The notes under the pieces: model-generated
What the model was told of the DNA's origin: nothing
The model's input: the letters and a program-made list of their open reading frames with translations, nothing else
Databases searched by the model: none
NCBI RefSeq assembly: GCF_002258315.1
Contig: NZ_NOYD01000050.1
Coordinates: forward strand, 124,001-188,000
Direction of reading: 5' to 3'
DNA length: 64,000 nucleotides
Origin: Rhodococcus sp. 06-462-5
Lineage (GTDB): Bacteria > Actinomycetota > Actinomycetes > Mycobacteriales > Mycobacteriaceae
Position numbers and translations under genes: made by a program
Shown here: positions 17,097-64,000 of the stretch, one piece after another
How positions within the stretch are numbered: the stretch's first letter is position 1
Layout of the letters: the number at the start of each line of letters is the position of its first letter

Positions 17097-19585
17097 TGAC
17101 CGCGTGCAAGCAGCGATTGCTGGTGGTCGGTAACGGGATGGCCGGTGCCAGGGCAGTCGAGGAGATCATCAAACGCGACGGCAGTTCGCAATTCGAGATA
17201 ACCATGATCGGCGACGAGCCGTACGGCAACTACAACCGAATCATGCTCTCGCACGTGCTGTCCGGCGAGGCCACCGTCGACGACGAGGATCTCATTCTCA
17301 ACCCGATGAGTTGGTACAGCGCGAACGGTGTGACCCTGCACGCCGGGGACCGCGCGATCTCGCTCGACCGGTTCTCCAAGACCGTCGTCTGCGAGAGCGG
17401 TCGGTCCGTCGACTACGACGTGCTCGTCATCGCCACCGGCAGCAATACGTTCTTCCCGAACATGGACGGTCTTCGGGAGTCCGACGGCAGGCTGGCGCGC
17501 GGCGTGTTCGGCTTCCGCACCATCGCCGACACCAACGGGATGCTGCAGATGGCGCAGTCGCGTGACGACGTCTCGGCGGTCGTCATCGGTGGCGGACTCC
17601 TCGGACTCGAAGCCGCGTACGGCTTGCGCACGCAGGGCCTGGAGGTGAACGTGGTGCACTCCCCCGGACACCTGATGAATCAGCAGCTCGACGAGCGCGG
17701 CGGACGAGTGCTGCGCAACAAGATCGAGTCACTCGGCGTCGGCGTGCACACCTCCAAGCGGACCACCTCGGTGTTGCGCTCCGAGGACGGCGTCGTCACG
17801 GGCGTCGGGTTCAACGACGGCACCTCGCTCGACGCGGACATGGTCGTGGTCACCGCGGGCATTCGTCCCAGTGTCGATTTCGCTCGCGCCGGCGGACTGG
17901 TGATCGAACGAGGAATTGTCGTCGACGACCAATTGCGTTGCGAGGACGAGGGTTCGATCTATGCCGTCGGCGAATGCTGCCAGCATCGCGGCGAGGTCTA
18001 CGGCCTGGTCGCGCCGCTGTGGGAACAGGCCGTCGTGTTGGCCGACGTGCTCACCGGAGCCGATCCCACTGCGGCGTACCACGGTTCGCGTCTGACCACC
18101 AAGCTCAAGGTGGCCGGTGTCGACGTCGCCTCGATGGGGATCACCTCTCCCGAACGCGACGACGACGAGTTCGTCCAGTTCTACGAACCGCGCAGTGGTA
18201 CGTACAAGTCGGTGATCGTGCGGAACAACAAGCTGGTCGGTGCCACCTTGCTGGGCGACATCTCCAAGGCCAACTTCCTGACGCAGGCGTTCGACGAAAA
18301 GGTGCCGTTGCCCGAGGAGCGCATCAGCATGCTCTTCGACATGGGAACTCCCTCTGCGGCAACAGGAGCCGCCGAGCTGGCCGACGACGTTCAGGTGTGC
18401 AACTGCAACGGTGTCACCAAGGGTGCCATCGTGGCCTGCGTGCACGCGGGTGCCAAGAACCTCGGTGACGTCACCGCGAAGACCCGAGCGGGCAAAGGGT
18501 GCGGATCGTGTAAGGGCCTGGTCAAGGACATCATCGCGTGTGCGGCAGGCGGTGCCGTCGAGGCCGATCCCACAGCCGACTGGTACGTCCCCTGCATTCC
18601 CATGACCAAGCCGGAACTGATCGACGCCGTTCGAGCGCAGGATCTTCGGGCGGTGTCTGCGGTGTTCGCGGCGCTGGCGACCGGCGGAGCAGAGGATGCC
18701 GCCGCCAAGATGCCGTTGGCATCGTTGCTGCGGACGGTGTGGGGCCCCGACTGGGTGGACGAGCGCGGCGCACTGTTCATCAACGACCGCGTCCACGCCA
18801 ACATCCAGCGCGACGGCACGTTCTCGGTGGTGCCGCAGATGAAGGGTGGCGTCACCACCCCGGATCAGTTGCGCAAGATCGCCGACGTCGCGGACAAGTA
18901 CCACGTTCCGCTGGTCAAGGTCACCGGCGGACAGCGGATCGACCTTCTCGGCATCAAGAAGGAGGATCTGCCGAAGGTGTGGGGCGATCTGGACATGCCC
19001 TCCGGCTTCGCCTACGGCAAGAGCATGCGCACGGTGAAGACCTGTGTCGGCAGCGACTTCTGTCGCTTCGGCCTCGGTGATTCGACAGCTCTTGGCATCG
19101 CCCTCGAAGAACGGTTCCAGGGCCTGGAGACTCCGGCGAAGTTGAAGCTCGCGGTCGCGGGCTGCCCACGCAACTGCTCGGAGGCACTGTGCAAGGACTT
19201 CGGCGTCGTCTCGGTCGGCGAAGACAAGTGGGAGATCTACGTCGGCGGTGCAGCAGGCGCGCACATCCGCAAGGGCGATCTACTGGCCACCGTGACGGGG
19301 GCCGAGGAGGTTCTGACCGTGGCAGGCAGGTTCATTCAGCACTACCGCGAGAACGCTCAGTGGCTCGAGCGGACGTACGCATGGGTCCCGCGTGTCGGCC
19401 TGGAAGAACTGCAGAGCGTGCTGATCGACGACCGGGACGGCATCGTCGCCGGACTCGACGAGCGAGTGCAGGCATCGGTGGACGGGTACATCGACCCCTG
19501 GCAGGACCGCGCGGCACCGAAGTCACCCGCCCAGTTCACCCCGTCGCTGCCCCTGCTTCCGCTCCCGCAGGTGCCGGTCCGATGA
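17096..19585 (+). CDS. nirB: Assimilatory nitrite reductase large subunit NirB
   Basis: Cytoplasmic NAD(P)H-dependent enzyme that reduces nitrite to ammonium; 829 residues. An FAD/NAD(P) oxidoreductase domain begins LLVVGNGMAGARAVEEI. A BFD-like [2Fe-2S] domain has VCNCNGVTKGAI near residue 434 and KGCGSCKG near 468. Ferredoxin-like and sulfite/nitrite reductase domains follow, with the four cysteines for the [4Fe-4S]-siroheme centre in TCVGSDFCRFGLGDS (about 649-655) and AGCPRNCSEALC (about 690-694). ATG at 17096 overlaps the previous stop, and its own stop overlaps nirD. All catalytic ligands are present, so it should be active. Confidence 0.96.
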   Translation: MTACKQRLLVVGNGMAGARAVEEIIKRDGSSQFEITMIGDEPYGNYNRIMLSHVLSGEATVDDEDLILNPMSWYSANGVTLHAGDRAISLDRFSKTVVCESGRSVDYDVLVIATGSNTFFPNMDGLRESDGRLARGVFGFRTIADTNGMLQMAQSRDDVSAVVIGGGLLGLEAAYGLRTQGLEVNVVHSPGHLMNQQLDERGGRVLRNKIESLGVGVHTSKRTTSVLRSEDGVVTGVGFNDGTSLDADMVVVTAGIRPSVDFARAGGLVIERGIVVDDQLRCEDEGSIYAVGECCQHRGEVYGLVAPLWEQAVVLADVLTGADPTAAYHGSRLTTKLKVAGVDVASMGITSPERDDDEFVQFYEPRSGTYKSVIVRNNKLVGATLLGDISKANFLTQAFDEKVPLPEERISMLFDMGTPSAATGAAELADDVQVCNCNGVTKGAIVACVHAGAKNLGDVTAKTRAGKGCGSCKGLVKDIIACAAGGAVEADPTADWYVPCIPMTKPELIDAVRAQDLRAVSAVFAALATGGAEDAAAKMPLASLLRTVWGPDWVDERGALFINDRVHANIQRDGTFSVVPQMKGGVTTPDQLRKIADVADKYHVPLVKVTGGQRIDLLGIKKEDLPKVWGDLDMPSGFAYGKSMRTVKTCVGSDFCRFGLGDSTALGIALEERFQGLETPAKLKLAVAGCPRNCSEALCKDFGVVSVGEDKWEIYVGGAAGAHIRKGDLLATVTGAEEVLTVAGRFIQHYRENAQWLERTYAWVPRVGLEELQSVLIDDRDGIVAGLDERVQASVDGYIDPWQDRAAPKSPAQFTPSLPLLPLPQVPVR

Positions 19586-19881
19586 GCGTGCCGGTCGGGG
19601 CCGTGGAGGACCTGACACCCGGCGAGGGACGCGCCTACGTGGTGGACGGCAAGCAGGTTGCGGTGTTCCTGCTCAGCGACGGCTCGGTGCGAGCGATGGA
19701 CGCCGTGTGCCCCCACAAGGGCGGGCCCCTGGCCGACGGTCAGATCGACGGGTCCATCGTCGTCTGCCCACTGCACCAGTACACGTTCTCGCTCGACGAC
19801 GGCACCTGCCCCAGCGGCATCGACTCGGTGCGCACCTACCCCGCCGCAGTAGTGGACGGAAAAGTAACCGTCGAACTCTGA
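19582..19881 (+). CDS. nirD: Nitrite reductase small subunit NirD
   Basis: Rieske-fold small subunit of the assimilatory nitrite reductase, 99 residues. The Rieske ligand pattern is intact: CPHKGG around the first Cys-His pair and CPLHQYTF around the second. NirD proteins elsewhere often lack the ligands, so a [2Fe-2S] cluster is possible here. The ATG overlaps the nirB stop by 4 nt (ATGA), which ties production to nirB. The gene ends the nir unit; the Wadjet operon begins 46 bp later on the same strand, so some read-through is possible. Confidence 0.93.
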   Translation: MSVPVGAVEDLTPGEGRAYVVDGKQVAVFLLSDGSVRAMDAVCPHKGGPLADGQIDGSIVVCPLHQYTFSLDDGTCPSGIDSVRTYPAAVVDGKVTVEL

Positions 19882-19890
19882 CCGGCACGG

Positions 19891-19921
19891 TTGAACGACT
19901 GGCACTCCTACCCCCTACCCT
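19891..19921 (+). promoter_or_regulatory. Putative promoter of the Wadjet operon
   Basis: TACCCT at 19916-19921 ends 6 nt before the jetA GTG, and TTGAAC at 19891-19896 lies 19 nt further upstream as a possible -35. This would give a leaderless jetA message independent of nirBD. Confidence 0.4.
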
Positions 19922-19927
19922 GTTCCA

Positions 19928-21451
19928 GTGAGCGAATCAGGCGAGGACGCGCGGCAGGGAGTCGTGAACGCGTTCGTGGAGGAAGATCGTCTCGGTCTGT
20001 TCTCGTTCGCCGTTGCCGAGAAGCGGTCCGAGTACCTGGCCGTTCTCCGGGCCTTCGACACCGCACGAGCCAACTACGTCGTCCTGCTGCACTCCGGAGA
20101 CGTGGCCGACCTCATCGCACGCAGCCCAGGTCGGCACGCCGCCCTGACCACCCTCGACATCGCACCTCTGCTCGATCAGCTCCACGCCTGGAATCTGCTC
20201 GAACGCAGTTACGACGGCACCCGCGCCGCAACCCTCGCCGAGTACCGCAACCGTCACTTCGTCTACCAGTTCGGCCAAGCCGGCTACAAGGTCTACCGCG
20301 CGGTCGAGGACGTGCTCGGGGCCCGCCTGGACGACGCGGCGCTGTCGAGGCTGGTGCTGCCCGAGCTGTTGGCGGATATGCACGAGCTGGCCGAGGCGAA
20401 CCGTCAGGCCGACGGCGATCGTATCTACCGCAAGCTCAGCCGACTCGATTCGACGCTGTCGGAAATGGCGACCCGCGCCGCCCACTTCTATCTGGTGCTC
20501 GGTGACCTCGTGCGCACCACCGAGATCACGCCGGAGTCGTTTCTGGTCCACAAGGACGCCCTGCTGACACACATGCGTGAATTCAGCTCCGATCTGACTC
20601 GCTACGCACCGAAGCTCGCCGAGGCGATAGCACTCGTCGAGAGCACCGGGATCGAGGAACTCGTCGAGCGAGCCGCGATCAGCGACGAACGAGTCTTCCT
20701 CACCGTGGACGAACGCCGCGCCGACTGGACCGATCGATGGGCCGGCCTCTCGCACTGGTTCGTCTCGGCCGAGTCCGAGCTCAGCGAGTCCGAGCGACTC
20801 CGCGAGGGTACGATGAGTGCGATCGCCGCCGTGCTGTCGCTGCTGCGCCGCGTCACGGAAACCCGCAAGGGCGGAGTCAGCCGCGAGAGCCAATTACGCC
20901 ACCTGGCCGGTTGGTTCGCTGCCGCGCCCACCGAGGACAGCGCGCATGCCCTGTTCCATGCCGTGTTCGGCCTCGGCAGACCACGGCACCTGTCGATGGT
21001 GCATCCCGACGCCGACATCATCTCGACGTCCCGATCGTGGTGGGAGGCACCGCCGGTCGAGATCTCGCGCACCTTGGCCGAGACCGGGCGCACCCCTACG
21101 CCCGGTGTTCCGGGGCGGGTGCAGCGCAACGACGGTGGCATTCGACGGCTGAGGGAGCAGCAACTCGAGTCGCAGCGATCACGCAGCGCCGCAGCGCAGT
21201 CGCTCGCCTCGGCCGGGATCCACGACCGCATTCTCGACGAGCAGGAAACCGAGGTGCTGTTGAGCTTGCTGAATGCTGCGTTGACCGCGCGGGTGCGCGT
21301 GAGCGGGCGCACTTCCGACTCTTCCGGGTCGGACAGCGGCGTGCGCCTGACACTGACCGACAGCGAGCGTTCGACGATCGTGCGGACCAGCAGGGGCCGA
21401 TTGCATCTGGACCGCCTCGCGCTCGAGGTCAGCGAGGTAGCACGCCGATGA
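19928..21451 (+). CDS. jetA: Wadjet JetA-like subunit (TIGR02677/DUF2397)
   Basis: Kleisin-like subunit of a predicted SMC-type plasmid-defence complex, 507 residues. It matches the DUF2397 family by overall plan: an N-terminal winged-helix-rich region (FSFAVAEKRSEYLAVLRAFDTARANYVVLL) and an alpha-helical middle (RQADGDRIYRKLSRLDSTLSEM, RDLAQLM-free helices of the HFYLVLGDLVRT type). The C-terminal region carries TLTDSERSTIVRTSRGRLHLDRLAL. The start is a GTG at 19928. It is first of four tightly packed genes, with its stop overlapping jetB by 4 nt. The family match is from recalled sequence features and the operon context; a profile search would settle it. Confidence 0.85.
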   Translation: MSESGEDARQGVVNAFVEEDRLGLFSFAVAEKRSEYLAVLRAFDTARANYVVLLHSGDVADLIARSPGRHAALTTLDIAPLLDQLHAWNLLERSYDGTRAATLAEYRNRHFVYQFGQAGYKVYRAVEDVLGARLDDAALSRLVLPELLADMHELAEANRQADGDRIYRKLSRLDSTLSEMATRAAHFYLVLGDLVRTTEITPESFLVHKDALLTHMREFSSDLTRYAPKLAEAIALVESTGIEELVERAAISDERVFLTVDERRADWTDRWAGLSHWFVSAESELSESERLREGTMSAIAAVLSLLRRVTETRKGGVSRESQLRHLAGWFAAAPTEDSAHALFHAVFGLGRPRHLSMVHPDADIISTSRSWWEAPPVEISRTLAETGRTPTPGVPGRVQRNDGGIRRLREQQLESQRSRSAAAQSLASAGIHDRILDEQETEVLLSLLNAALTARVRVSGRTSDSSGSDSGVRLTLTDSERSTIVRTSRGRLHLDRLALEVSEVARR

Positions 21452-22881
21452 GAGCTCGCGAGATCTCCACCCTCGCACTGGATTCCTACCAGCGGGCCGC
21501 CCGGGTCGCGCTGTCGAATCACCTGGTGACCACGACGTACCCCGATCGGATCGCGCTACCACTGCTGCGTCGATGGGCGACCGAGCTGCGCGAGGACCTG
21601 CTCGAACTGTTCGGGTATCGCCTCGAGGTCACCGAGACCACCGCACGTCTGTTCCCGGTGATCGACGCCCTCGACGACAGCCAACCGGCGCGCACGTCCA
21701 CCGACCGAATCTTCGATCGCCGCAGATACGCGTACCTGGCTTTGGCGCTTGCGGCTCTCGGCCGGGCGGGCAACCAGATCACTCTGTCCGAACTTGCCGA
21801 TCACGTTGCGGCCGAGGCGAGTCAGGTCGACGGTGTCGAGCTGACGACCGACCGGGCAAGCGACCGAGACGCGTTCGTCGACGCGATCGGCTGGCTCGCG
21901 ACCCGCGGCGCCATCGCGTTGGCCGACGGTGATGCGACCGGCTGGGCGAACAACCCGTCCGCAGGCGAGGCGCTCTACGACATCGACCGTCCCGTCGTCG
22001 TCGCCATGTTCCGGCCGCCCCGCGCCGTGCAGCACCTGCGATCGATCCGCGGTCTGCTGGCAGGCTCGGTCGCGCCGATCGATCCCGAGGATTCCGAACC
22101 GGGACAGCCCGATTCCGGGCGTGAGGCAGACCCGAAGGAAACGCTGCGTGCGGTACGCCGAGCGTTGGTCGAGCAACCGGTCGTCTACCTCGACGATCTC
22201 GACCTGGACGGCCGCACCGCGCTGGCCGCGTCGCGCACCGTTGCCGACGTCGAGTTGTTGACCGGCCTCGTTGCCGAGCGTCGCTCCGAAGGAGTCGCCC
22301 TCATCGACACCTCGGGTCGGCTCTCGGACTACCGGTTCCCCAGCACCGGAACCATCGCCCAGGTCGCATTGCTGATTGCGGGCGAAATCTCGGACCGAGT
22401 GATCGATCCGGATGCACCCGCGCTGGCGACCTACCCCCTTCCCGACGGTGACGCCCTGGTGGATCAGTTGGACAGCGCCATTCCCGACGGCGGGATCTTC
22501 GGCGATCTCGCCGAGTTCGGGTTCGGTTCCGATGCAACGGCATTCGGCGATGCGGGCGAGAAGAAACTGTATCCGTTGATCGAGGACAGTTGGCTGACAA
22601 CGGTCGTCGACGATCTCGTCGAACGCTTCGGCCGCACCTTCGCAGCTCAGTGGCAGACCGATCGGGACGGACTGCGAGTGCGGGCGATCGCGCTGTTGCA
22701 CCGACTTCGACTGATACACAGCGTGTCCGGCGGCGTACTGGTGCTGCCGGTGATCGCGCGCTACCGCGACGTGATGGTCAGCGTGCGTGATCGGACCCCG
22801 CAGGACTCACTGTTCGGCACCGAACAAGCCCCCAGAACCGCACAGTCCGTCAGTAACGAATCGTCCGAAGTAGAGGCCTGA
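21448..22881 (+). CDS. jetB: Wadjet JetB-like subunit (TIGR02678/DUF2398)
   Basis: A 477-residue protein of the DUF2398 type, the kleisin-associated (KITE-like) subunit in type II Wadjet. Recognisable segments are TYPDRIALPLLRRWATELRED near the N-terminus, RRRYAYLALALAALGRAGNQITLSEL in the first third and the C-terminal winged helix (LRVRAIALLHRLRLIHSVSGGVLVLPVIARYRD). ATG at 21448 overlaps the jetA stop (ATGA) and jetC starts 5 nt after its stop. Coupling of all four genes implies a fixed-stoichiometry complex. No transmembrane segment or nuclease motif is visible. Confidence 0.85.
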   Translation: MRAREISTLALDSYQRAARVALSNHLVTTTYPDRIALPLLRRWATELREDLLELFGYRLEVTETTARLFPVIDALDDSQPARTSTDRIFDRRRYAYLALALAALGRAGNQITLSELADHVAAEASQVDGVELTTDRASDRDAFVDAIGWLATRGAIALADGDATGWANNPSAGEALYDIDRPVVVAMFRPPRAVQHLRSIRGLLAGSVAPIDPEDSEPGQPDSGREADPKETLRAVRRALVEQPVVYLDDLDLDGRTALAASRTVADVELLTGLVAERRSEGVALIDTSGRLSDYRFPSTGTIAQVALLIAGEISDRVIDPDAPALATYPLPDGDALVDQLDSAIPDGGIFGDLAEFGFGSDATAFGDAGEKKLYPLIEDSWLTTVVDDLVERFGRTFAAQWQTDRDGLRVRAIALLHRLRLIHSVSGGVLVLPVIARYRDVMVSVRDRTPQDSLFGTEQAPRTAQSVSNESSEVEA

Positions 22882-22886
22882 GGTAG

Positions 22887-25800
22887 ATGACCGCACACTC
22901 GACACGCTTTCGGCCGACGCGAGCAGGGATCGTCAACCTGTGGGACTACCGCGATCAGGAGTTCTCCTTCGCCGACGGTCGCCTGGTGCTGCGTGGTCCC
23001 AACGGATCCGGCAAGACCAAGGCACTGGAAGTGCTGTTTCCCTTCGTCCTGGACGGACGCATCGAACCCCGCCGACTCAATCCCTTCGCCGGAGAAGAGC
23101 GGACGATGAAGTCCAACCTGCTCTACCGAGGGCAGGAAAGCGCGCATTCGTACGTGTGGATGGAGTTCGGCCGCGGTTCACGCGAGGACCCCGAATCGGT
23201 GACGGTCGGAATCGGAATGCGGGCCAGTCGACACAACGACAAGGTGACCCGCTGGTACTTCGTGGCCGACGGTCGAGTGGGCGTGGACTTCTCGTTGTTG
23301 GGTTCCGACGACCGGCCGTTGACGAAGAAGCAGCTCGGTGAGCAGCTGGGTACCGACGCGTTGACCGATCGCCCGGTGGACTACCGCGCCGCGATCGATG
23401 CCCGCATGTTCGGTCTGGGCGCGCAACGCTACGACCAGCTGATCAATCTCATTCTGACGCTTCGTCGCCCGCAATTGGCCAAGAACCTCGACCCCAAGGG
23501 GCTCTCGCAGGCGCTGACCGACGGTCTGCGTCCGTTGGACGAGCAGCTGGTGCTCGAGGCGGCGCGCTCGTTCAGCGACATGGAAGAAGTAGGCCGTGCA
23601 CTCGAAGGACTGGCACAGGCCGATCACGCCGCCAAGAACTTCGTCTCGGTGTACTCCAAATACCTTCGAGTACAGACCCGTTCGGACGTCGAGCAGGTCT
23701 CGCGCCGGCTCGAGGCGGTGACTCACGCGACCACGGCGCACTTCGCCGCCGCCGCCCTGAAGGACCGGCGTCTGCTGGAACGAGCGGCTGCGGAAACCCG
23801 ATTCGACGAGGCCGAACGCGCACTGGATCAGGCCGTTGCAGACCGCGAAACTCTGCAGCGCTCGAGCGCCTACGAGGGCAAGCAGCAACTGGACGACTTG
23901 GCCGAATCCGCCGCGAAGCTGGAGATCTCGACCGCCCAGCAAGCCGACCGCGCACGCAAGGCGCACGCCGAACTGGAACAGCGCACCACCGAGTCGGCGC
24001 GCGCCGACTCCGCACTCCGAGACTCCGTTGCCGGGGTGACCCGCGCCGAGGAAGAACTGCAGACTGCAGCCGAGGACGCGGGAATCGTCTGGACACCACT
24101 GCCCGGAACAGCGCGCAGCGATCAGATCAGCACCGCTCTGCGTGGCCATGCCGAGGAGCGCGACGGCGACGTGCGGGCGGTTCGCGAGGCGCTGGGAACC
24201 GTCGAGAAGGCATCGACCGAGCGCGCTCGCGCGGAGAGGGCCGCTTCGAAGGCTCGCGAGATGCTCGAGGCAGCGTCGGCGGCGGTCACCGAGGCCGAGG
24301 CCACCGTCGATCTGGAGAAGGCGCAGTTCGCGTCGGGTCTGCGGGCCTGGTGGTCGGCCAATTCGGCGTCGTACTCCGCGGCGGGCATCACCTCCGCAGC
24401 CTTCGAGGCCCTCGACGCCGCGTTGGCGGGCATCGGCGACGACGATGCCCCGAGCCTGGAATCGGTGCTGGCCGACCAAACCGCAGACGCGGTCGACGCA
24501 CTTCGTGCCCGCCAGGCCCAGGCACGCGTCGACGTGACGACCCGCACGGCCGAGCTGAACGCGCTGCGTGACGAGCTGTCCCTGGTGCGCGCCGAACACG
24601 ATGACGCGCCGCCGCCGTTCGCGGCACGAACCGACTCTCGCGTCGAACTCTCGGGTGCGCCACTGTGGCAGCTGGTTCGGTTTGCCGACTCGGTCTCCTC
24701 TACCGACGCGGCAGGGATCGAAGCCGCACTGCAGGCAGCGAATCTGCTCGACGGCTGGATTCACCCGACCGCGGACTTCCCCGTCGACTCGAACTCGGAG
24801 CAGTATCTGTCGCCGCTGCCGGAAACCTCGAGGCCGACCGGGACCACGTTGGCGTCCGTCCTCGAACCCGAGCCCGGTACCGCCGTATCCGAATCGCGCA
24901 TCCTCGACGTGCTGAAATCGATTGCACTGCAACAGGATCAACACACTGCCTCGGGTAGTGCCGTCTCGGTGGGTATCGACGGTCGGTACTGGCAGGGGGT
25001 GCAGCAGGGCCGACACACCAAGACCGATGCCGAGTACATCGGCGCGACGGCCCGTGCGCGGCGCCGAGAGCAGCGGATCGCCGAACTCGGCGCTGCGATC
25101 GACACCGCAACAGCCGCACTGGAGGCCGCGACGGTCGACGAGCGATCTGCCCGCGAATCGGTACAGGCACTGGCTGCGGCCGCCAAGCAACTCCCCCGGG
25201 TCTCGGCCATCGTGAAAGCGCAACGCACCGTCACCGCCGCCGCCGGAGCGCTGCGTACCTCGAAGGAGACTTCTGCTGCGGCCGACCGCGAGTTCGACCA
25301 GGCGATCGCAGACCTGTCCGCGAAGGAGAAGCAGCTACGCACCGTCGCGGTGGCGCACCACACCCCACACATCGGTCGAGACATCGATGCCCTCGCCGCG
25401 GCGATCCGGCATTTCGAACACCAGGGCTCGGTGGTGATCCGCAAGCGCGGCGATCACACGCGCGAAGCAGAACGCGCCCGCGAAGCAACCAACCGACTCG
25501 AAGAAGCGAGTGGCCTGGCCGAGGAGCTCGCCGAGGAAGCCGCCATAGCCGACGAGAACTACCGACAGCAGGTCCAACGCCTCGAGCTCCTGAGCGAGAA
25601 GCTCGGTGCCACCGCAGAACAGATCGACACCGATCTCGAGAACGCGCGCGAACGCATCGAGAAGTGCCGCGCCGAGCAGCGGGCCGCGCGCAAGGCGGAC
25701 AAGGAAGCGGGCGAAGCGATCGGCAAGGCCGAGGGGGCGTGCAACACAGCGCTCGAGAGCCTGCGCGGTGCCGTCACCGAAACCCTGGGCGACGCCGTGC

Positions 25801-27071
25801 GGCTCGCGCCCTACGCTCGCAAGGACCTGCTCGGCATCCTCGGCGTCCACGAGGCGTACACCTGGCCGGCGAGCGACTCGGCGTGGTTGAGCGTGGAGCA
25901 GATTCTGTATCGAGTGCAGCAGGCCGAGGGTCCCGACGACGAGGTTCCGGTACTTCCGCCCGTCGTGCGCGCTCTGCATTCGGCGCTCGACGCAGCGACG
26001 GCGTCGGTGAAAGTCAGTGACTCGAGCCGAAAGTCGACCCGGACAGCGCTGACGAGTGCGCTGCAGGAGTTCGACTCGCAGCTCGCCGCATCGGGTCAGG
26101 ACTACCGCCTGCAGTGGGATGCGCCGGACGGTTTGACCGTGGTCCGAGTTCAGGACGAGCAGGGGTACTCGTCGGTCGGAGATTTCGCCGACCGAATCGG
26201 TGCGGCGAGAGCCGATCAGGAGTTGCTGCTGACCGAGCAGGAGCGCCGAATTCTCGAGGATGCACTGCTGACCGGCCTGGCGCAGCAGATTCACGAGCGC
26301 ACTGTCGACGCACGCGAGTTGATCGCGCAGATGTCCGCCGAGATGAAGCAGCGCCGCATGTCCTCGGGCAACACGATCGGTGTGCACTGGGTGCTCGCGG
26401 ACAACCTCGACGACGGTGCCCGGGCGGTGTCCAAACTGCTCGACCGCGACGCCTCGGCCTTGAACCAGGACGATCTGGCCGCGATGCGAGCCCACTTCGC
26501 GTCGGAGATCAGGATCGCTCGGGCGGCGCATCCGGAACGGTCCTACCCCGAGATCCTCTCCACGACACTGGACTATCGCCGCTGGCGCGTGTTCGCCTTC
26601 ACTCTCATCAGCGGCGACGGCAACGAGGATCGTCTCACCGTCGCACGCCACAGTGCGCTCTCGGGCGGTGAGCAGTCGGTGTCGCTGCACCTGCCCCTGT
26701 TCGCCGCTGCGCACGTGATGCTCTCGTCCGCCGATCCACATTCACCTCGACTACTGGCGCTGGACGAGGCATTCGCCGGCGTCGACGACAACGGCCGCAG
26801 CGAATTGCTCGGGCTGAGTGTGCAATTCGATCTCGATCTGTTCATGACCGGATACGACCTGTGGATCACCTACAGGGACGTTCCCGGCTGCGCGCACTAC
26901 GACCTGGCGCATTCGACAGCCGAGAACACCGTCAGCGCAGCTCTTCTGGTGTGGGAGAACGGCGAACTGTTCGCCGAGCACGACGGTACCGACCTCGCTG
27001 CTGCACTCGGGTCACCTTTGACCCGCCGGGTGCCGACCCGAACCGAAGGTGGGCTGGAGTTTGACCGGTAA
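22887..27071 (+). CDS. jetC: Wadjet JetC-like SMC/Rad50-type ATPase (TIGR02680)
   Basis: The motor of the system, 1394 residues. Walker A GPNGSGKT is at residues 37-44. Long coiled coils rich in Ala, Glu, Arg and Leu run from about 250 to 560 and again from about 700 to 1000, separated by a hinge-like region. The C-terminal head carries the ABC signature LSGGEQ at 1258-1263 and Walker B RLLALDEAF at about 1288-1296. All ATPase residues needed for head engagement are present. Such ATPases extrude DNA loops and sense small circles. The gene is full length with no frameshift, and its end overlaps jetD by 23 nt if jetD uses the GTG at 27049. Confidence 0.9.
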   Translation: MTAHSTRFRPTRAGIVNLWDYRDQEFSFADGRLVLRGPNGSGKTKALEVLFPFVLDGRIEPRRLNPFAGEERTMKSNLLYRGQESAHSYVWMEFGRGSREDPESVTVGIGMRASRHNDKVTRWYFVADGRVGVDFSLLGSDDRPLTKKQLGEQLGTDALTDRPVDYRAAIDARMFGLGAQRYDQLINLILTLRRPQLAKNLDPKGLSQALTDGLRPLDEQLVLEAARSFSDMEEVGRALEGLAQADHAAKNFVSVYSKYLRVQTRSDVEQVSRRLEAVTHATTAHFAAAALKDRRLLERAAAETRFDEAERALDQAVADRETLQRSSAYEGKQQLDDLAESAAKLEISTAQQADRARKAHAELEQRTTESARADSALRDSVAGVTRAEEELQTAAEDAGIVWTPLPGTARSDQISTALRGHAEERDGDVRAVREALGTVEKASTERARAERAASKAREMLEAASAAVTEAEATVDLEKAQFASGLRAWWSANSASYSAAGITSAAFEALDAALAGIGDDDAPSLESVLADQTADAVDALRARQAQARVDVTTRTAELNALRDELSLVRAEHDDAPPPFAARTDSRVELSGAPLWQLVRFADSVSSTDAAGIEAALQAANLLDGWIHPTADFPVDSNSEQYLSPLPETSRPTGTTLASVLEPEPGTAVSESRILDVLKSIALQQDQHTASGSAVSVGIDGRYWQGVQQGRHTKTDAEYIGATARARRREQRIAELGAAIDTATAALEAATVDERSARESVQALAAAAKQLPRVSAIVKAQRTVTAAAGALRTSKETSAAADREFDQAIADLSAKEKQLRTVAVAHHTPHIGRDIDALAAAIRHFEHQGSVVIRKRGDHTREAERAREATNRLEEASGLAEELAEEAAIADENYRQQVQRLELLSEKLGATAEQIDTDLENARERIEKCRAEQRAARKADKEAGEAIGKAEGACNTALESLRGAVTETLGDAVRLAPYARKDLLGILGVHEAYTWPASDSAWLSVEQILYRVQQAEGPDDEVPVLPPVVRALHSALDAATASVKVSDSSRKSTRTALTSALQEFDSQLAASGQDYRLQWDAPDGLTVVRVQDEQGYSSVGDFADRIGAARADQELLLTEQERRILEDALLTGLAQQIHERTVDARELIAQMSAEMKQRRMSSGNTIGVHWVLADNLDDGARAVSKLLDRDASALNQDDLAAMRAHFASEIRIARAAHPERSYPEILSTTLDYRRWRVFAFTLISGDGNEDRLTVARHSALSGGEQSVSLHLPLFAAAHVMLSSADPHSPRLLALDEAFAGVDDNGRSELLGLSVQFDLDLFMTGYDLWITYRDVPGCAHYDLAHSTAENTVSAALLVWENGELFAEHDGTDLAAALGSPLTRRVPTRTEGGLEFDR

Positions 27072-28299
27072 CAGCGAATGGCGCGGCAGCGTCGAATTGG
27101 CTGCACTGCTCGATGCGGCACGAAAGAAGTTGGAGTCCAACTGGCTTCGCGTCGGCGGCAACATCACCGTCGACTTGAGCGACGCCCCGGAGCTGTGGCG
27201 TCTGTGCAGCGCCATCTCTCGGTCCAACTCCAGTCTGCATTCCCGGGCGCGCAGCACCAGGCTCGACCTCGAGCGGTTCGACGCGTGGCTGAGCCATCCG
27301 CTCAACGGTGGCCTCGGACTGATCGACACCCTCACTCTGCAGGCCCCGCTGCAGGACAAGAAGAAGATCGCTGCCGACAAGGCACAGGTCCGCGCGGATG
27401 CACTCGATCGGGCCAGAGAGGTTCTCGGCGGTGGTACCGATCGCGAGTGGATCGAGCACTGGATCGCGTCGCTGCTCAATCAGGACGGCACACTCGGGGG
27501 CCGCGTCGCCGTCGACGCGCTCGCGGTGGCGACACAGGTCCTGGCGCTGCTTCCGGTGGACGGAATGTCGCTGACCGAACTCGCGGAACTGGCCTGCGGT
27601 GATACGAAGGCGCTCTCTGGCGGCGGTGCCCCGAAACTCGTCCTCGACGCGTTGTCGTTGCGCGAGAACGTGCCTCGGCCCGTCGATCCGGTCGGCATCA
27701 GGGCGTTGTGGGAGACCGCGGGCGTGTCGGTCGACGCAGTGTCCAGCCGGGTGCTGGTGCTCGGCTATCGCGTCGACGAGACCCACACGGTGGCTCGTTG
27801 GCTCAACGACGCAGCAGACGAGGGCATCCCCTTCCCCGTCACCGTGGACATGCTCTCGCGCGGGCCACTCACCAACAGCTCGTCCACGGTGTTCGTCTGC
27901 GAGAACGTGGCCGTGCTCGCCGCCGCAGCCCGCACCATCGGCTCGAACTGCGCGAGCCTGATCTGCACCGACGGTCAGCCCTCCGCGGCTGTGCACCGGC
28001 TGCTGGCCTCCCGCGCGCCCGGCACCACGATCCACTGGCGAGCCGACTTCGACTGGGCCGGAGTGCACATGGTGACCCGAGCGCTCTCCCGATACGACGC
28101 CTTGCCGTGGCGCATGGACGTCGACTCGTACCGGCATGCGCTCGATGCGCGGAACTCCGAGCCGCTGAAGGGCCATCCGACGGCCAGTCCATGGGACCCG
28201 GAACTGGCTGAGGCCCTTCGCGACTCGGGTCGAGCAGTCATGGAAGAACGACTGATCCCGGATCTGCTGGCCGATCTGCGGACCGGGGATTCGATCTAG
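27049..28299 (+). CDS. jetD: Wadjet JetD-like Toprim nuclease (TIGR02679/DUF2399)
   Basis: Predicted nuclease subunit, 416 residues from the GTG at 27049 (a TTG at 27061 is an alternative). The C-terminal DUF2399 domain shows the Toprim signature: VCEN with Glu285, then IHWRADFDWAGVHM with Asp333 and Asp335 as the metal-binding pair. The N-terminal part is the DNA-binding arm (LEADER-like ERFDAWLSHPLNGG region and helices to about residue 200). In studied Wadjet systems this subunit cuts plasmid DNA after the SMC complex has extruded it. It converges on mshC with only 12 bp between the stops. Confidence 0.87.
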   Translation: MGWSLTGNSEWRGSVELAALLDAARKKLESNWLRVGGNITVDLSDAPELWRLCSAISRSNSSLHSRARSTRLDLERFDAWLSHPLNGGLGLIDTLTLQAPLQDKKKIAADKAQVRADALDRAREVLGGGTDREWIEHWIASLLNQDGTLGGRVAVDALAVATQVLALLPVDGMSLTELAELACGDTKALSGGGAPKLVLDALSLRENVPRPVDPVGIRALWETAGVSVDAVSSRVLVLGYRVDETHTVARWLNDAADEGIPFPVTVDMLSRGPLTNSSSTVFVCENVAVLAAAARTIGSNCASLICTDGQPSAAVHRLLASRAPGTTIHWRADFDWAGVHMVTRALSRYDALPWRMDVDSYRHALDARNSEPLKGHPTASPWDPELAEALRDSGRAVMEERLIPDLLADLRTGDSI

Positions 28300-28311: not shown

Positions 28312-29553
28312 TCAGCGCAGCGGAACGCCGAGCAGCGCGTCGACCGCATCGGCGAAGGCACCGGGTGCGCCCGCATCCGACCCGCCGCGTTCGACCGCGA
28401 AACTCGCCCACGCGTCGAGAGCATCGAGGGCCTTGGGGGTGTCCAGATCGTCGGCCAGATGCTGCCGCAACCGATTGATCACATCGTCGGCCGACGCGGC
28501 GCTCTCGAGCGCTGCCGCCCGGCGCCACAGTGCGAGCCGGGTGTGAGCCCGTTCGAGAACCTCGTCGGACCACGGCCGATCCTGCCGGTAGTGGCCGGAG
28601 AGCAAACCGAGTCGCACGGCGGCCGGATCGACGTCCTCGGCGCGGAGCTTGGAGACGAACACCAGGTTGCCGCGGCTCTTGGACATCTTCTCGCCGTCGA
28701 GCCCGATCATCCCGGTGTGCACGTAGTGGCGCGCGAAGCGCGGGTCACCGGTCGCGGCCTCGGCGTGGGCGGCCGAGAATTCGTGGTGCGGAAAGATGAG
28801 ATCGCTTCCGCCGCCCTGAATGTCGAAGGCGGTACCGATGCGGTTGAGCGCGATGGCCGCGCATTCGATGTGCCACCCGGGCCGGCCAGGACCCCACGGC
28901 GACGGCCACGACGGCTCGCCCGGCCGCACTGCGCGCCAGAGCAACGCATCGAGTGGATCCCGCTTACCGACGCGATCGGGGTCGCCACCGCGTTCGGCGA
29001 AGAACGTGTCCATCGTGGCGCGGTCGTAACCGGACTCGTAGCCGAACTGCTCGGTGGCATCGGCACGGAAGTACACATCCGGGTATTCGGCATCGTCGAC
29101 GACGTACGCGGCACCGGACGCGACCAGCTTCTCCACCAGTTCGACGACCTCGTCGACGGACTCGACGGCGCCGATGTAGTCGCGCGGAGGGAGCACCCGG
29201 AGCGCTTCCATGTCTGCGCGGAAGAGTTCGATCTCACGTGCTCCCAGATCGCGCCAGTCCTCGCCGTCGCGGTCGGCGCGCTCGAACAGTGGATCGTCGA
29301 CATCGGTGACGTTCTGCACGTAGTGCACGTCCGTGCCCGCGTCCAACCACAGCCGGTAGATCAGGTCGAACGTCAGGTACGTCGCTGCGTGCCCCAGGTG
29401 GGTGGCGTCGTACGGGGTGATTCCGCAGACGTACATCCGCGCCGTCGAACCGGGGGTGACGGGACGGACCTGGCGGTCGGCGGTGTCGAACAATCGAAGC
29501 GCTGGACCCTGTCCTGGGATTGTCGGGATCTCCGGGCTCGACCAAGAATGCAT
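28312..29553 (-). CDS. mshC: Mycothiol ligase MshC
   Basis: Cysteine:glucosaminyl-inositol ligase, which activates cysteine with ATP and joins it to GlcN-Ins in mycothiol synthesis. The 413-residue protein is a class I cysteinyl-tRNA synthetase relative. It has the zinc/cysteine site [18 protein letters not shown] (with the HIGH-like element) and the KMSKS loop in [10 protein letters not shown], but it lacks the tRNA anticodon-binding domain of true CysRS. The N-terminus [19 protein letters not shown] is typical of MshC. A TAGGCT hexamer ends 7 nt before the ATG, so the message may be leaderless. It is downstream of the SCO1664-like gene in a conserved actinobacterial neighbourhood. Confidence 0.95.
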
Positions 29554-63276: not shown

Positions 63277-64000
63277 TCAGGGAAGTCGTTGCCTCATCAC
63301 CAACGCCGAACCGAGGCCGACCGAGATGCACAGGACACCGAGAATCAGCCATGGGCGCGAGGCGTCGCCACGGGTGATCTCGAATCCGATCTGCTCCTCG
63401 AGGGTGTCGTAGACATCTCTCAGATCCTCGAGTGACGACGCGGAGAAGAAGCTGCCGCCGGACAGATCCGCGATCTCACGCAACGACGGATCGTCGACGG
63501 GTACGGGGACGCGTTCGACGCCGTTGTCGTCCTCGATCTCGACCGAGCCGTAGCTGGTGCCGAACGAGATGGTGGAGATGGGCACGTTCTTGTCCTTGGC
63601 GGCACGCGCCGCGGTGTACCCGCCGCGTGGGTCGTCGAGGTTCTGCGGAACGGTCTGCTTACCGTCCGAGAGCAGCACGATGCGCGCAGGCGGTGCTGCG
63701 TCGCCGCCGCCGAGTATCGCTCCGAGGGTGTCGATCGACTGGAGCGAGGTGAAGATCGCCTCGCCGGTGGCCGTTCGCTCGCTGAGCTGCAACTTGTCGA
63801 TGGCGGATTTGGTGGCTTCGCGGTTGGCGGTGGGCGAGACCAGAACCGACGCCGTACCGGCGAACGCGACCAATCCGAGATTGATGCCTGGTGTCAGACC
63901 GTCGGCGAAGGATTTGGCTGCTTCCTGCGCCGCGGCCAATCGGGTCGGCTCGACGTCGGTGGCCTCCATGGACAGCGACACGTCGATCACGAGCATGACG
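63277..64000 (-). CDS. VWA-domain membrane protein (Rv1481 position), 3' part
   Basis: The frame remains open to the end of the window, so the 5' part is missing. The visible 240 residues begin with the MIDAS metal site [14 protein letters not shown] (DxSxS), followed by the rest of the von Willebrand A fold ([27 protein letters not shown]). A C-terminal transmembrane helix ends the chain ([20 protein letters not shown]). In mycobacteria this protein sits next to a MoxR ATPase and is thought to act with it as a chaperone-like pair. It precedes fabG by 66 bp on the same strand. Confidence 0.88.

What the first reader, a model, noticed from the sequence alone, without database searches (positions are those of the whole stretch)
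19928..28299. Complete type II-like Wadjet (jetABCD) plasmid-defence operon inside core DNA
Seen: four tightly packed genes with the features of DUF2397, DUF2398, a 1394-residue SMC/Rad50-type ATPase (Walker A, LSGGEQ, Walker B all intact) and a DUF2399 Toprim nuclease (CEN and DFD motifs intact). Established: these families form Wadjet, which restricts small circular DNA. Inference: the system is functional and targets plasmids. It interrupts an otherwise mycobacteria-like gene order between nirD and mshC with no integrase, IS or tRNA nearby, which suggests stable residence as part of the chromosome rather than a recent island.
Basis: partly seen in the sequence, partly recalled or inferred. 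Interest (0 to 1): 0.82.

Follow-up and report, generated by a model that had tools for sequence, protein, structure and literature searches.

The report
Core Wadjet operon with optional nuclease
This stretch holds an intact four-gene bacterial system of a kind known to cut small circular DNA; in its relatives the DNA-handling motor is a fixed, inherited part of the chromosome while the cutting enzyme is often absent, which suggests the motor has a second job.

Summary
Window 19928-28299 encodes an intact type II Wadjet operon: JetA (DUF2397), JetB (DUF2398), JetC (TIGR02680, 1394 aa) and JetD (DUF2399, JetD/Topo VI-A-like fold). It is not a recent island: jetABC, followed directly or after jetD by mshC, is present in 37 of 37 genomes held for the genus, and JetC divergence follows that of rpoB. 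DUF2399 is absent genome-wide in 8 of those 37, and jetD is absent from 77 of 110 related loci collected from Rhodococcus, Prescottella, Nocardia and Antrihabitans. In the JetD-less loci the JetC ATPase motifs are unchanged (76 of 76) and jetABC stays under purifying selection (median dN/dS 0.03-0.19). The JetDs sampled from these loci form one clade, so repeated loss is likelier than repeated gain, though trees of JetC and JetD do not fully agree. Best reading: in this strain JetABCD cuts small circular DNA, as a purified type II system does, and JetABC also has a conserved role that needs no JetD, perhaps chromosome handling. Identity, site and descent are shown; activity and the second role are inference. 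The operon itself is canonical; the nuclease-optional lineage is the new part.

The parts
19928..21451 (+). jetA, DUF2397 (predicted kleisin), 507 aa, GTG start, 46 bp after nirD
   Evidence: PF09660 466.3 bits, TIGR02677 235.1 against cut-off 165.85; JetA2 607.5 bits; PDB 9qe0 JetA E 9.7e-17
21448..22881 (+). jetB, DUF2398 (predicted KITE), 477 aa, ATGA overlap with jetA
   Evidence: PF09661 219.5 bits, TIGR02678 125.5 against cut-off 124.65; JetB2 703.3 bits; no PDB relative at E 0.01
22887..27071 (+). jetC, TIGR02680 SMC-type ATPase, 1394 aa
   Evidence: TIGR02680 719.6 bits against cut-off 462.85; PDB 9qe0 JetC E 3.1e-74; GPNGSGKT, LSGGEQ and LDE invariant in 109 JetCs compared
27049..28299 (+). 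jetD, DUF3323+DUF2399 Toprim nuclease, 416 aa from GTG 27049 or 412 aa from TTG 27061
   Evidence: PF09664 146.2 and PF11796 90.5 bits; model pLDDT 85.6, best PDB folds C. glutamicum nuclease 8b7f, JetD 7til and Topo VI-A
27901..27903 (+). JetD E285 codon (CEN motif)
   Evidence: invariant in 39 of 39 JetDs
28045..28053 (+). JetD D333-F-D335 codons
   Evidence: invariant in 39 of 39 JetDs
19582..19881 (+). nirD, left neighbour; found in the fetched stretch of 32 of 37 genus loci
   Evidence: Rieske domain; count
28312..29553 (-). mshC, convergent right neighbour, 12 bp after jetD; marks the site
   Evidence: PF01406 295.6 bits; downstream of jetABC in 37 of 37 genus loci

Best explanation
The operon is an intact type II Wadjet. 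JetA (kleisin), JetB (KITE) and JetC (SMC ATPase) form a loop-extruding complex that takes up DNA; when a small circle has been reeled in completely, JetD, a Topo VI-A-like Toprim nuclease, cuts it. It belongs to a lineage that has descended with the chromosome in Rhodococcoides and its relatives (Rhodococcus, Prescottella, Antrihabitans, Nocardia). In that lineage JetABC is kept and JetD has, most likely, been lost repeatedly. JetABC should therefore have a conserved function that does not need JetD, most likely an MksBEF-like action on the chromosome or on replicon maintenance. Shown: gene content, intactness, site conservation in the genus, descent, absence of JetD elsewhere, purifying selection. 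From published work on other Wadjets: loop extrusion and cutting of circles. Inferred: activity in this strain, repeated loss, and the nuclease-independent role.
For: Family matches, JetD fold, type II structure relatives. JetC in 37 of 37 genus genomes; jetABC with mshC downstream in 37 of 37. JetC distances follow rpoB (26 genomes, Mantel r 0.68, 0 of 5000 permutations as high) and mshC+uppP (53 loci, r 0.89, 0 of 2000). No JetC of 60% identity or more in 72,556 plasmid records. DUF2399 in 29 of 37 genus genomes. In the family sample of 301, 129 genomes have JetC-II at E<1e-60 and 73 of these have neither DUF2399 nor DUF2220 at E<1e-15. Collected loci: 33 of 110 with jetD (44); no convincing jetD remnant in the rest. 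ATPase motif residues identical in 76 of 76 JetD-less JetCs. Median dN/dS of jetA, jetB, jetC 0.03-0.19 in seven JetD-less groups, 0.04-0.11 in two JetD+ groups. Thirteen JetDs of these loci form one clade, UFBoot 97, against 36 others. A near pair differs cleanly: 1224 bp between jetC and mshC in L075, 55 bp in L076. Outside the family 42 of 51 JetC-II genomes have a TIGR02679 match.
Against: No activity was measured. No JetA/B/C column was invariant with JetD and degraded without it (12-13 JetD+ against 17-19 JetD- sequences), so no lost docking site was found and JetABC could still meet a nuclease in trans. The JetC tree groups Rhodococcoides with L104 rather than with L114 and L128 (UFBoot 90), unlike the JetD tree. 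Parsimony without constraint needs only 4-6 changes against 9-16 losses. Two of the four JetD+ loci outside the genus (L104, L192) have neither PAC2 nor mshC within reach, as do 22 of 110 loci in all. dN/dS is higher in most JetD-less groups than in JetD+ ones, and than in the neighbour genes. The complementarity with MksF follows genera and is not independent. jetA is interrupted in two JetD+ drafts.
Confidence: 0.7

Rival explanations
1. Ordinary plasmid defence only: JetABCD restricts small circular DNA, and the JetD-less loci restrict plasmids without cutting (for example by compaction) or with an unrelated nuclease supplied in trans.
For: A purified type II system cleaves naked circles (PMC12647877, passages). 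A review proposes that Smc5/6 acts on circular viral DNA by compaction, without cutting (PMC10586767, passages). No lost JetD-docking site in JetABC.
Against: All four subunits are reported necessary in B. subtilis (PMC10586767, passages). R. erythropolis NI86/21, whose Wadjet_II is listed with three proteins, carries circular plasmids of 5.9, 106 and 107 kb (PMC12915292, passages). Presence in 37 of 37 species of a genus is unusual for a defence locus (general knowledge).
Confidence: 0.35
2. JetD-less loci are decaying leftovers of a lost defence system.
For: Most JetD-less groups show somewhat raised dN/dS, up to 0.19.
Against: ATPase motif residues unchanged in 76 of 76; no internal stop or frame change was flagged in jetA, jetB or jetC of the 77 JetD-less loci, apart from genes cut by contig ends and stops within the last residues; dN/dS far below 1.
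Confidence: 0.05
3. JetABC alone is ancestral here and JetD was gained, or regained, several times by transfer.
For: Unconstrained parsimony needs only 4-6 changes. JetC and JetD trees disagree on L104, L114 and L128. L104 and L192 lack the usual flanks within reach.
Against: Thirteen sampled JetDs from these loci are monophyletic (UFBoot 97) against 36 others, sit directly behind jetC, and the split L104, L192 against L114, L128, g1 fits rpoB (UFBoot 77 there). Most JetC-II genomes outside the family have JetD (42 of 51).
Confidence: 0.15
4. Recent defence island inserted between nirD and mshC.
For: Sixteen of 20 genomes without JetC-II have PAC2 and mshC close together with no jet gene between.
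Against: Same site in 37 of 37 genus genomes, vertical signal, no mobility gene among the 20 flanking ORFs scanned, no near plasmid copy.
Confidence: 0.01

Closest known systems
Type II Wadjet of Neobacillus vireti (nvJET)
   Same: Type II; reported to cleave naked circular DNA (PMC12647877, passages). PDB entries 9qe0/9qe1, to which JetA and JetC are homologous, are probably this system; that link is my inference.
   Different: The window operon is a fixed chromosomal locus of an actinobacterial clade in which JetD is optional. The structure paper is only cited; I did not read it.
Type I Wadjet / MksBEFG of Corynebacterium glutamicum
   Same: Same four-part logic; the JetD model resembles the C. 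glutamicum nuclease 8b7f.
   Different: Different families (DUF3375, DUF3322/DUF2220; DUF4194 recalled). The window genome has no DUF3375 match.
Nuclease-free MksBEF
   Same: An SMC complex of likely Wadjet origin without its nuclease; a review states that P. [quoted passage not shown]
   Different: Type I families there, type II families here; the window copy still has JetD.
Wadjet_II call in R. erythropolis NI86/21
   Same: Probably the same JetABC lineage, listed with three proteins (PMC12915292, Table 4 passage); I did not compare the sequences.
   Different: Three proteins, no fourth listed; the passage that I saw does not comment on it.

Membership tests
Wadjet type II | JetA of the DUF2397 family | tested here: met
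   PF09660 466.3 bits, TIGR02677 over cut-off
Wadjet type II | JetB of the DUF2398 family | tested here: met
   PF09661 219.5 bits; TIGR02678 125.5 against cut-off 124.65
Wadjet type II | JetC of TIGR02680 with intact SMC ATPase motifs | tested here: met
   719.6 bits against cut-off 462.85; motifs intact
Wadjet type II | JetD with DUF2399 Toprim domain and catalytic acids | tested here: met
   PF09664 146.2 bits; E285, D333, D335 invariant in 39 of 39; fold matches JetD and Topo VI-A. TIGR02679 188.2 is below its cut-off of 196
Wadjet type II | Four genes in one tight operon | tested here: met
   Same strand, 4 bp overlap, 5 bp gap, 11 or 23 nt overlap; transcription not tested
Wadjet type II | Reduces establishment of small circular plasmids, ATP- and JetD-dependent | not testable with these tools
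   Needs a strain or purified proteins
MksBEF / type I Wadjet | DUF3375 subunit | tested here: not met
   No PF11855 match in G000
Recent mobile defence island | Patchy distribution, mobility genes beside it | tested here: not met
   37 of 37 genus genomes; 20 flanking ORFs scanned, none a mobility family

The most novel reading that the evidence does not exclude
In the Rhodococcus-Nocardia group a type II Wadjet has become the clade's core accessory SMC complex: JetABC lost its nuclease repeatedly and took over, in place of MksBEF, a standing role in chromosome organisation or segregation, with the window strain holding the ancestral, still-armed form.
Probability: 0.4. Interest if true: 0.75.

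Novelty: new variant of a known kind. Interest (0 to 1): 0.52.

Why it matters
A review proposes that MksBEF, and perhaps MukBEF, arose from Wadjet, with loss of JetD in the case of P. aeruginosa MksBEF (PMC10586767, passages). Here the same step seems to have happened repeatedly, in another Wadjet type and among close relatives, so armed and disarmed versions of one complex can be compared directly. It also suggests that annotation counts include nuclease-less loci as plasmid defence: R. erythropolis NI86/21 is listed as Wadjet_II with three proteins, and 73% of 97 Rhodococcus genomes are reported to have a Wadjet together with an RM system and either Eleos or PD-T4-3 (PMC10482375, passages).

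Tried and rejected
A replacement nuclease behind jetC in JetD-less loci: in six loci the intervening ORFs that I read by eye looked like a GNAT/AAA protein, SARP-type regulators, a homocysteine methyltransferase and others (labels are mine, no profile search). ORFs between PAC2 and jetA or behind jetC fell into lineage-bound groups, none shared by all JetD-less loci. A trans-acting substitute is therefore not excluded. A lost JetD-docking patch: 13 JetD+ against 19 JetD- loci (12 against 17 for JetA) gave 0 columns invariant in JetD+ and at most 35% in JetD-, for each of JetA, JetB and JetC; the reverse control gave 1 in each. JetD remnants: HMM scan of six frames gave nothing below E 0.02; the best was L206 (0.026), 3.8 kb from jetC. 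A small circular plasmid in a JetD+ genome: the 12.3 kb contig G023:C3 has no exact terminal overlap and no recognised replication gene among ten ORFs scanned; inconclusive. Promoter and terminator scan around the nirD-jetA gap: none found, uninformative. M. smegmatis EptC as a nuclease-free precedent: dropped, because the system is described as EptABCD, four genes.

Errors and corrections: the first rpoB tree used wrong frames for part of the genomes and gave r 0.014; I repeated it with the right frame and use only that; the JetC tree printed is not affected. In one search a Walker B pattern missed 13 loci because of a change just before the motif, and L217 is cut by its contig; the column count shows D and E invariant.
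Full report
What is there. The window lies in a 5.76 Mb genome of 61 contigs. The genus is Rhodococcoides/Rhodococcus by inference: contigs of the unnamed genus genomes have the same lengths as named records of Rhodococcoides and Rhodococcus strains. Four genes on the + strand form one tight unit: jetA 19928-21451, jetB 21448-22881, jetC 22887-27071 and jetD (27049 or 27061)-28299. Pfam, NCBIfam and PADLOC place them in DUF2397, DUF2398, TIGR02680 and DUF3323+DUF2399, called JetA2, JetB2, JetC2 and JetD2. JetD falls short of the TIGR02679 cut-off (188.2 against 196) but passes both Pfam cut-offs. An AlphaFold2 model of JetD (mean pLDDT 85.6, pTM 0.52) matches best, in the PDB, the C. glutamicum nuclease 8b7f, JetD of P. 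aeruginosa and Topo VI-A (E 4e-8 to 8e-4; TM-scores of 0.31-0.43 are low, perhaps because the domains are hinged differently, my reading). JetA and JetC have solved relatives, 9qe0/9qe1; JetB found none.

Surroundings. Upstream are metH, PAC2, nirB and nirD; downstream are mshC, a histidine-phosphatase-family gene and a BacA/UppP gene. nirD ends 46 bp before jetA and mshC lies 12 bp after jetD, on the other strand. Base composition does not stand out (GC 0.63-0.69 across the operon, 0.62-0.70 around). In 20 genomes without JetC-II, mshC has the phosphatase and/or uppP near it in 20 of 20; PAC2 lies in the same stretch in 16, 82-3734 bp from mshC with no jet gene between, and in four of these nirBD sits there (two g10, one g16, one g18). 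In the other four, three of genus g22 among them, PAC2 is not in reach.

Core status. JetC is present in 37 of 37 genomes of the genus, 66-98% identical in the 36 others. In all 37 loci jetA, jetB and jetC are found with mshC downstream. JetC distances follow those of mshC+uppP in 53 loci (Mantel r 0.89, 0 of 2000; rank correlation 0.91 among JetD+ pairs but 0.56 among JetD- and 0.41 between the groups) and those of rpoB in 26 genomes (r 0.68, 0 of 5000; 0.80 without the four most diverged JetCs). Of 110 related loci, 42 have both PAC2 and mshC in the stretch that I hold, 46 have one of them and 22 have neither, some because the contig ends; in Nocardia PAC2 is near (about 2-6 kb) but mshC is not in reach. 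Among 72,556 plasmid records there are 19 matches, none at 60% identity or more and none in Rhodococcus or Nocardia (the tool may leave out records very near the window). In the 301-genome family sample, 129 have JetC-II at E<1e-60.

The nuclease is optional. DUF2399 is found anywhere in the genome in only 29 of the 37 genus members; the eight without it are G001, G002, G005, G007, G012, G013, G017 and G035. Seven of these eight (not G035) were also searched with the type I nuclease domain PF09983; their rows show no match. I collected 158 loci (the window, 77 fetched regions and the 80 best of 368 named matches), removed 35 that are identical over JetC residues 101-400 and 13 with JetC below 50% identity, and kept 110. 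Of these, 33 have jetD and 77 do not; this set is weighted to near relatives. mshC is in reach in 32 of the 77 JetD-less loci, and in ten of these it follows jetC within 70 bp; stop-to-stop spacers of 7-57 bp were read for nine of the ten. The near pair L075 (1224 bp) and L076 (55 bp), both titled Rhodococcoides kyotonense, shows the difference cleanly. No convincing JetD remnant was found. Outside the family, 42 of 51 JetC-II genomes have a TIGR02679 match, against 40 of 129 with DUF2399 inside it (the two samples used different JetD profiles and thresholds). So JetD-less genomes also occur outside the family, in 9 of 51.

JetABC is kept intact. GPNGSGKT, LSGGEQ and LDE are identical in 33 of 33 JetD+ and 76 of 76 JetD- JetCs (one JetD- locus, L217, is cut by its contig end and not counted). 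Median Nei-Gojobori dN/dS for jetA, jetB and jetC is 0.03-0.19 in seven JetD-less groups and 0.04-0.11 in two JetD+ groups, where jetD itself is 0.11-0.12. Values are higher in most JetD-less groups, the neighbours mshC, uppP and PAC2 are lower in nearly all, and dS passes 1 in some groups, so these are rough. No internal stop or frame change was flagged in jetABC of the JetD-less loci apart from contig ends and stops within the last residues; two JetD+ drafts, L073 and L084, have an interrupted jetA.

Loss or gain. Among the 110 loci, JetD outside the genus was found behind jetC in L104, L114, L128 and L192 only. Thirteen JetDs (nine of the 29 of the genus and these four) form one clade (UFBoot 97) against 30 class-level and 6 island JetDs; a quick tree of all 33 with the six island JetDs also separates them. 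The split L104, L192 against L114, L128 and the genus fits the rpoB tree (UFBoot 77 there). Against simple co-descent, the JetC tree groups the genus with L104 and not with L114 and L128 (UFBoot 90), and L104 and L192 have neither flank marker in reach. Assuming presence at a midpoint root and no regain, 16 losses are needed on the JetC tree (109 tips), 14 on rpoB (26) and 9 on mshC+uppP (53); unconstrained parsimony needs 5, 6 and 4 changes. I favour repeated loss but cannot exclude some regain.

Complementarity. In the 301 genomes, JetC-II alone occurs in 111, DUF3375 alone in 104, both in 18 and neither in 68. Of 70 DUF3375 genomes without the type I nuclease domain, only 2 also have JetC-II, and these belong to genera g30 and g8, in which it is otherwise not seen in this sample; 16 of the 52 with that domain have JetC-II. 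Genera are not independent points, so I draw no probability from this.

How it most likely works. With all parts intact and under purifying selection, this should hold for the window operon; it is untested. The conservation of JetABC without JetD asks for a further function. An MksBEF-like role is the best-supported guess, by analogy with P. aeruginosa MksBEF and the complementary distribution. Plasmid restriction without cutting is the main rival; against it, R. erythropolis NI86/21, whose Wadjet_II is listed with three proteins, carries three circular plasmids including one of 5.9 kb.

Literature. Searches for Wadjet with type II, Rhodococcus, JetD or JetABC wording, MksBEF and MksG, the DUF and TIGR names, and type II Wadjet listed nothing whose listing, or the passages I opened, describe nuclease-less type II Wadjet as a conserved lineage. 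The library lacks most subscription journals. I asked for six papers and saw passages of five (PMC10482375, PMC10123090, PMC10586767, PMC12915292, PMC12647877) and nothing of the sixth (PMC4169951, not held); I read none in full.

Noticed in passing
   Followed up: partly
G323, G411, G421, G439, G440, G474, G482, G490, G513 (same class, other families): Nine of 51 JetC-II genomes outside the family have no TIGR02679 match; three of one genus (g64: G482, G490, G513) show two or three JetC matches.
   Followed up: no
G057, G127, G247 (genus g22): Members of a mostly JetC-II genus that lack JetC-II and have DUF3375 instead, as if one SMC complex replaced the other.
   Followed up: partly
L113, L115, L173, L179, L127: jetC-mshC spacer: Near-perfect palindromes fill the short spacer, probably bidirectional terminators for the converging genes.
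   Followed up: no
window 19882-19927: Only 46 bp and no promoter- or terminator-like match between nirD and jetA, so jet may be co-transcribed with nirBD here; the spacing varies among relatives.
   Followed up: partly
L073, L084: Interrupted jetA in two JetD+ draft or metagenome assemblies.
   Followed up: partly
window 63626-63713: ARAGORN reports a tRNA-like gene with an unreadable two-base anticodon.
   Followed up: no
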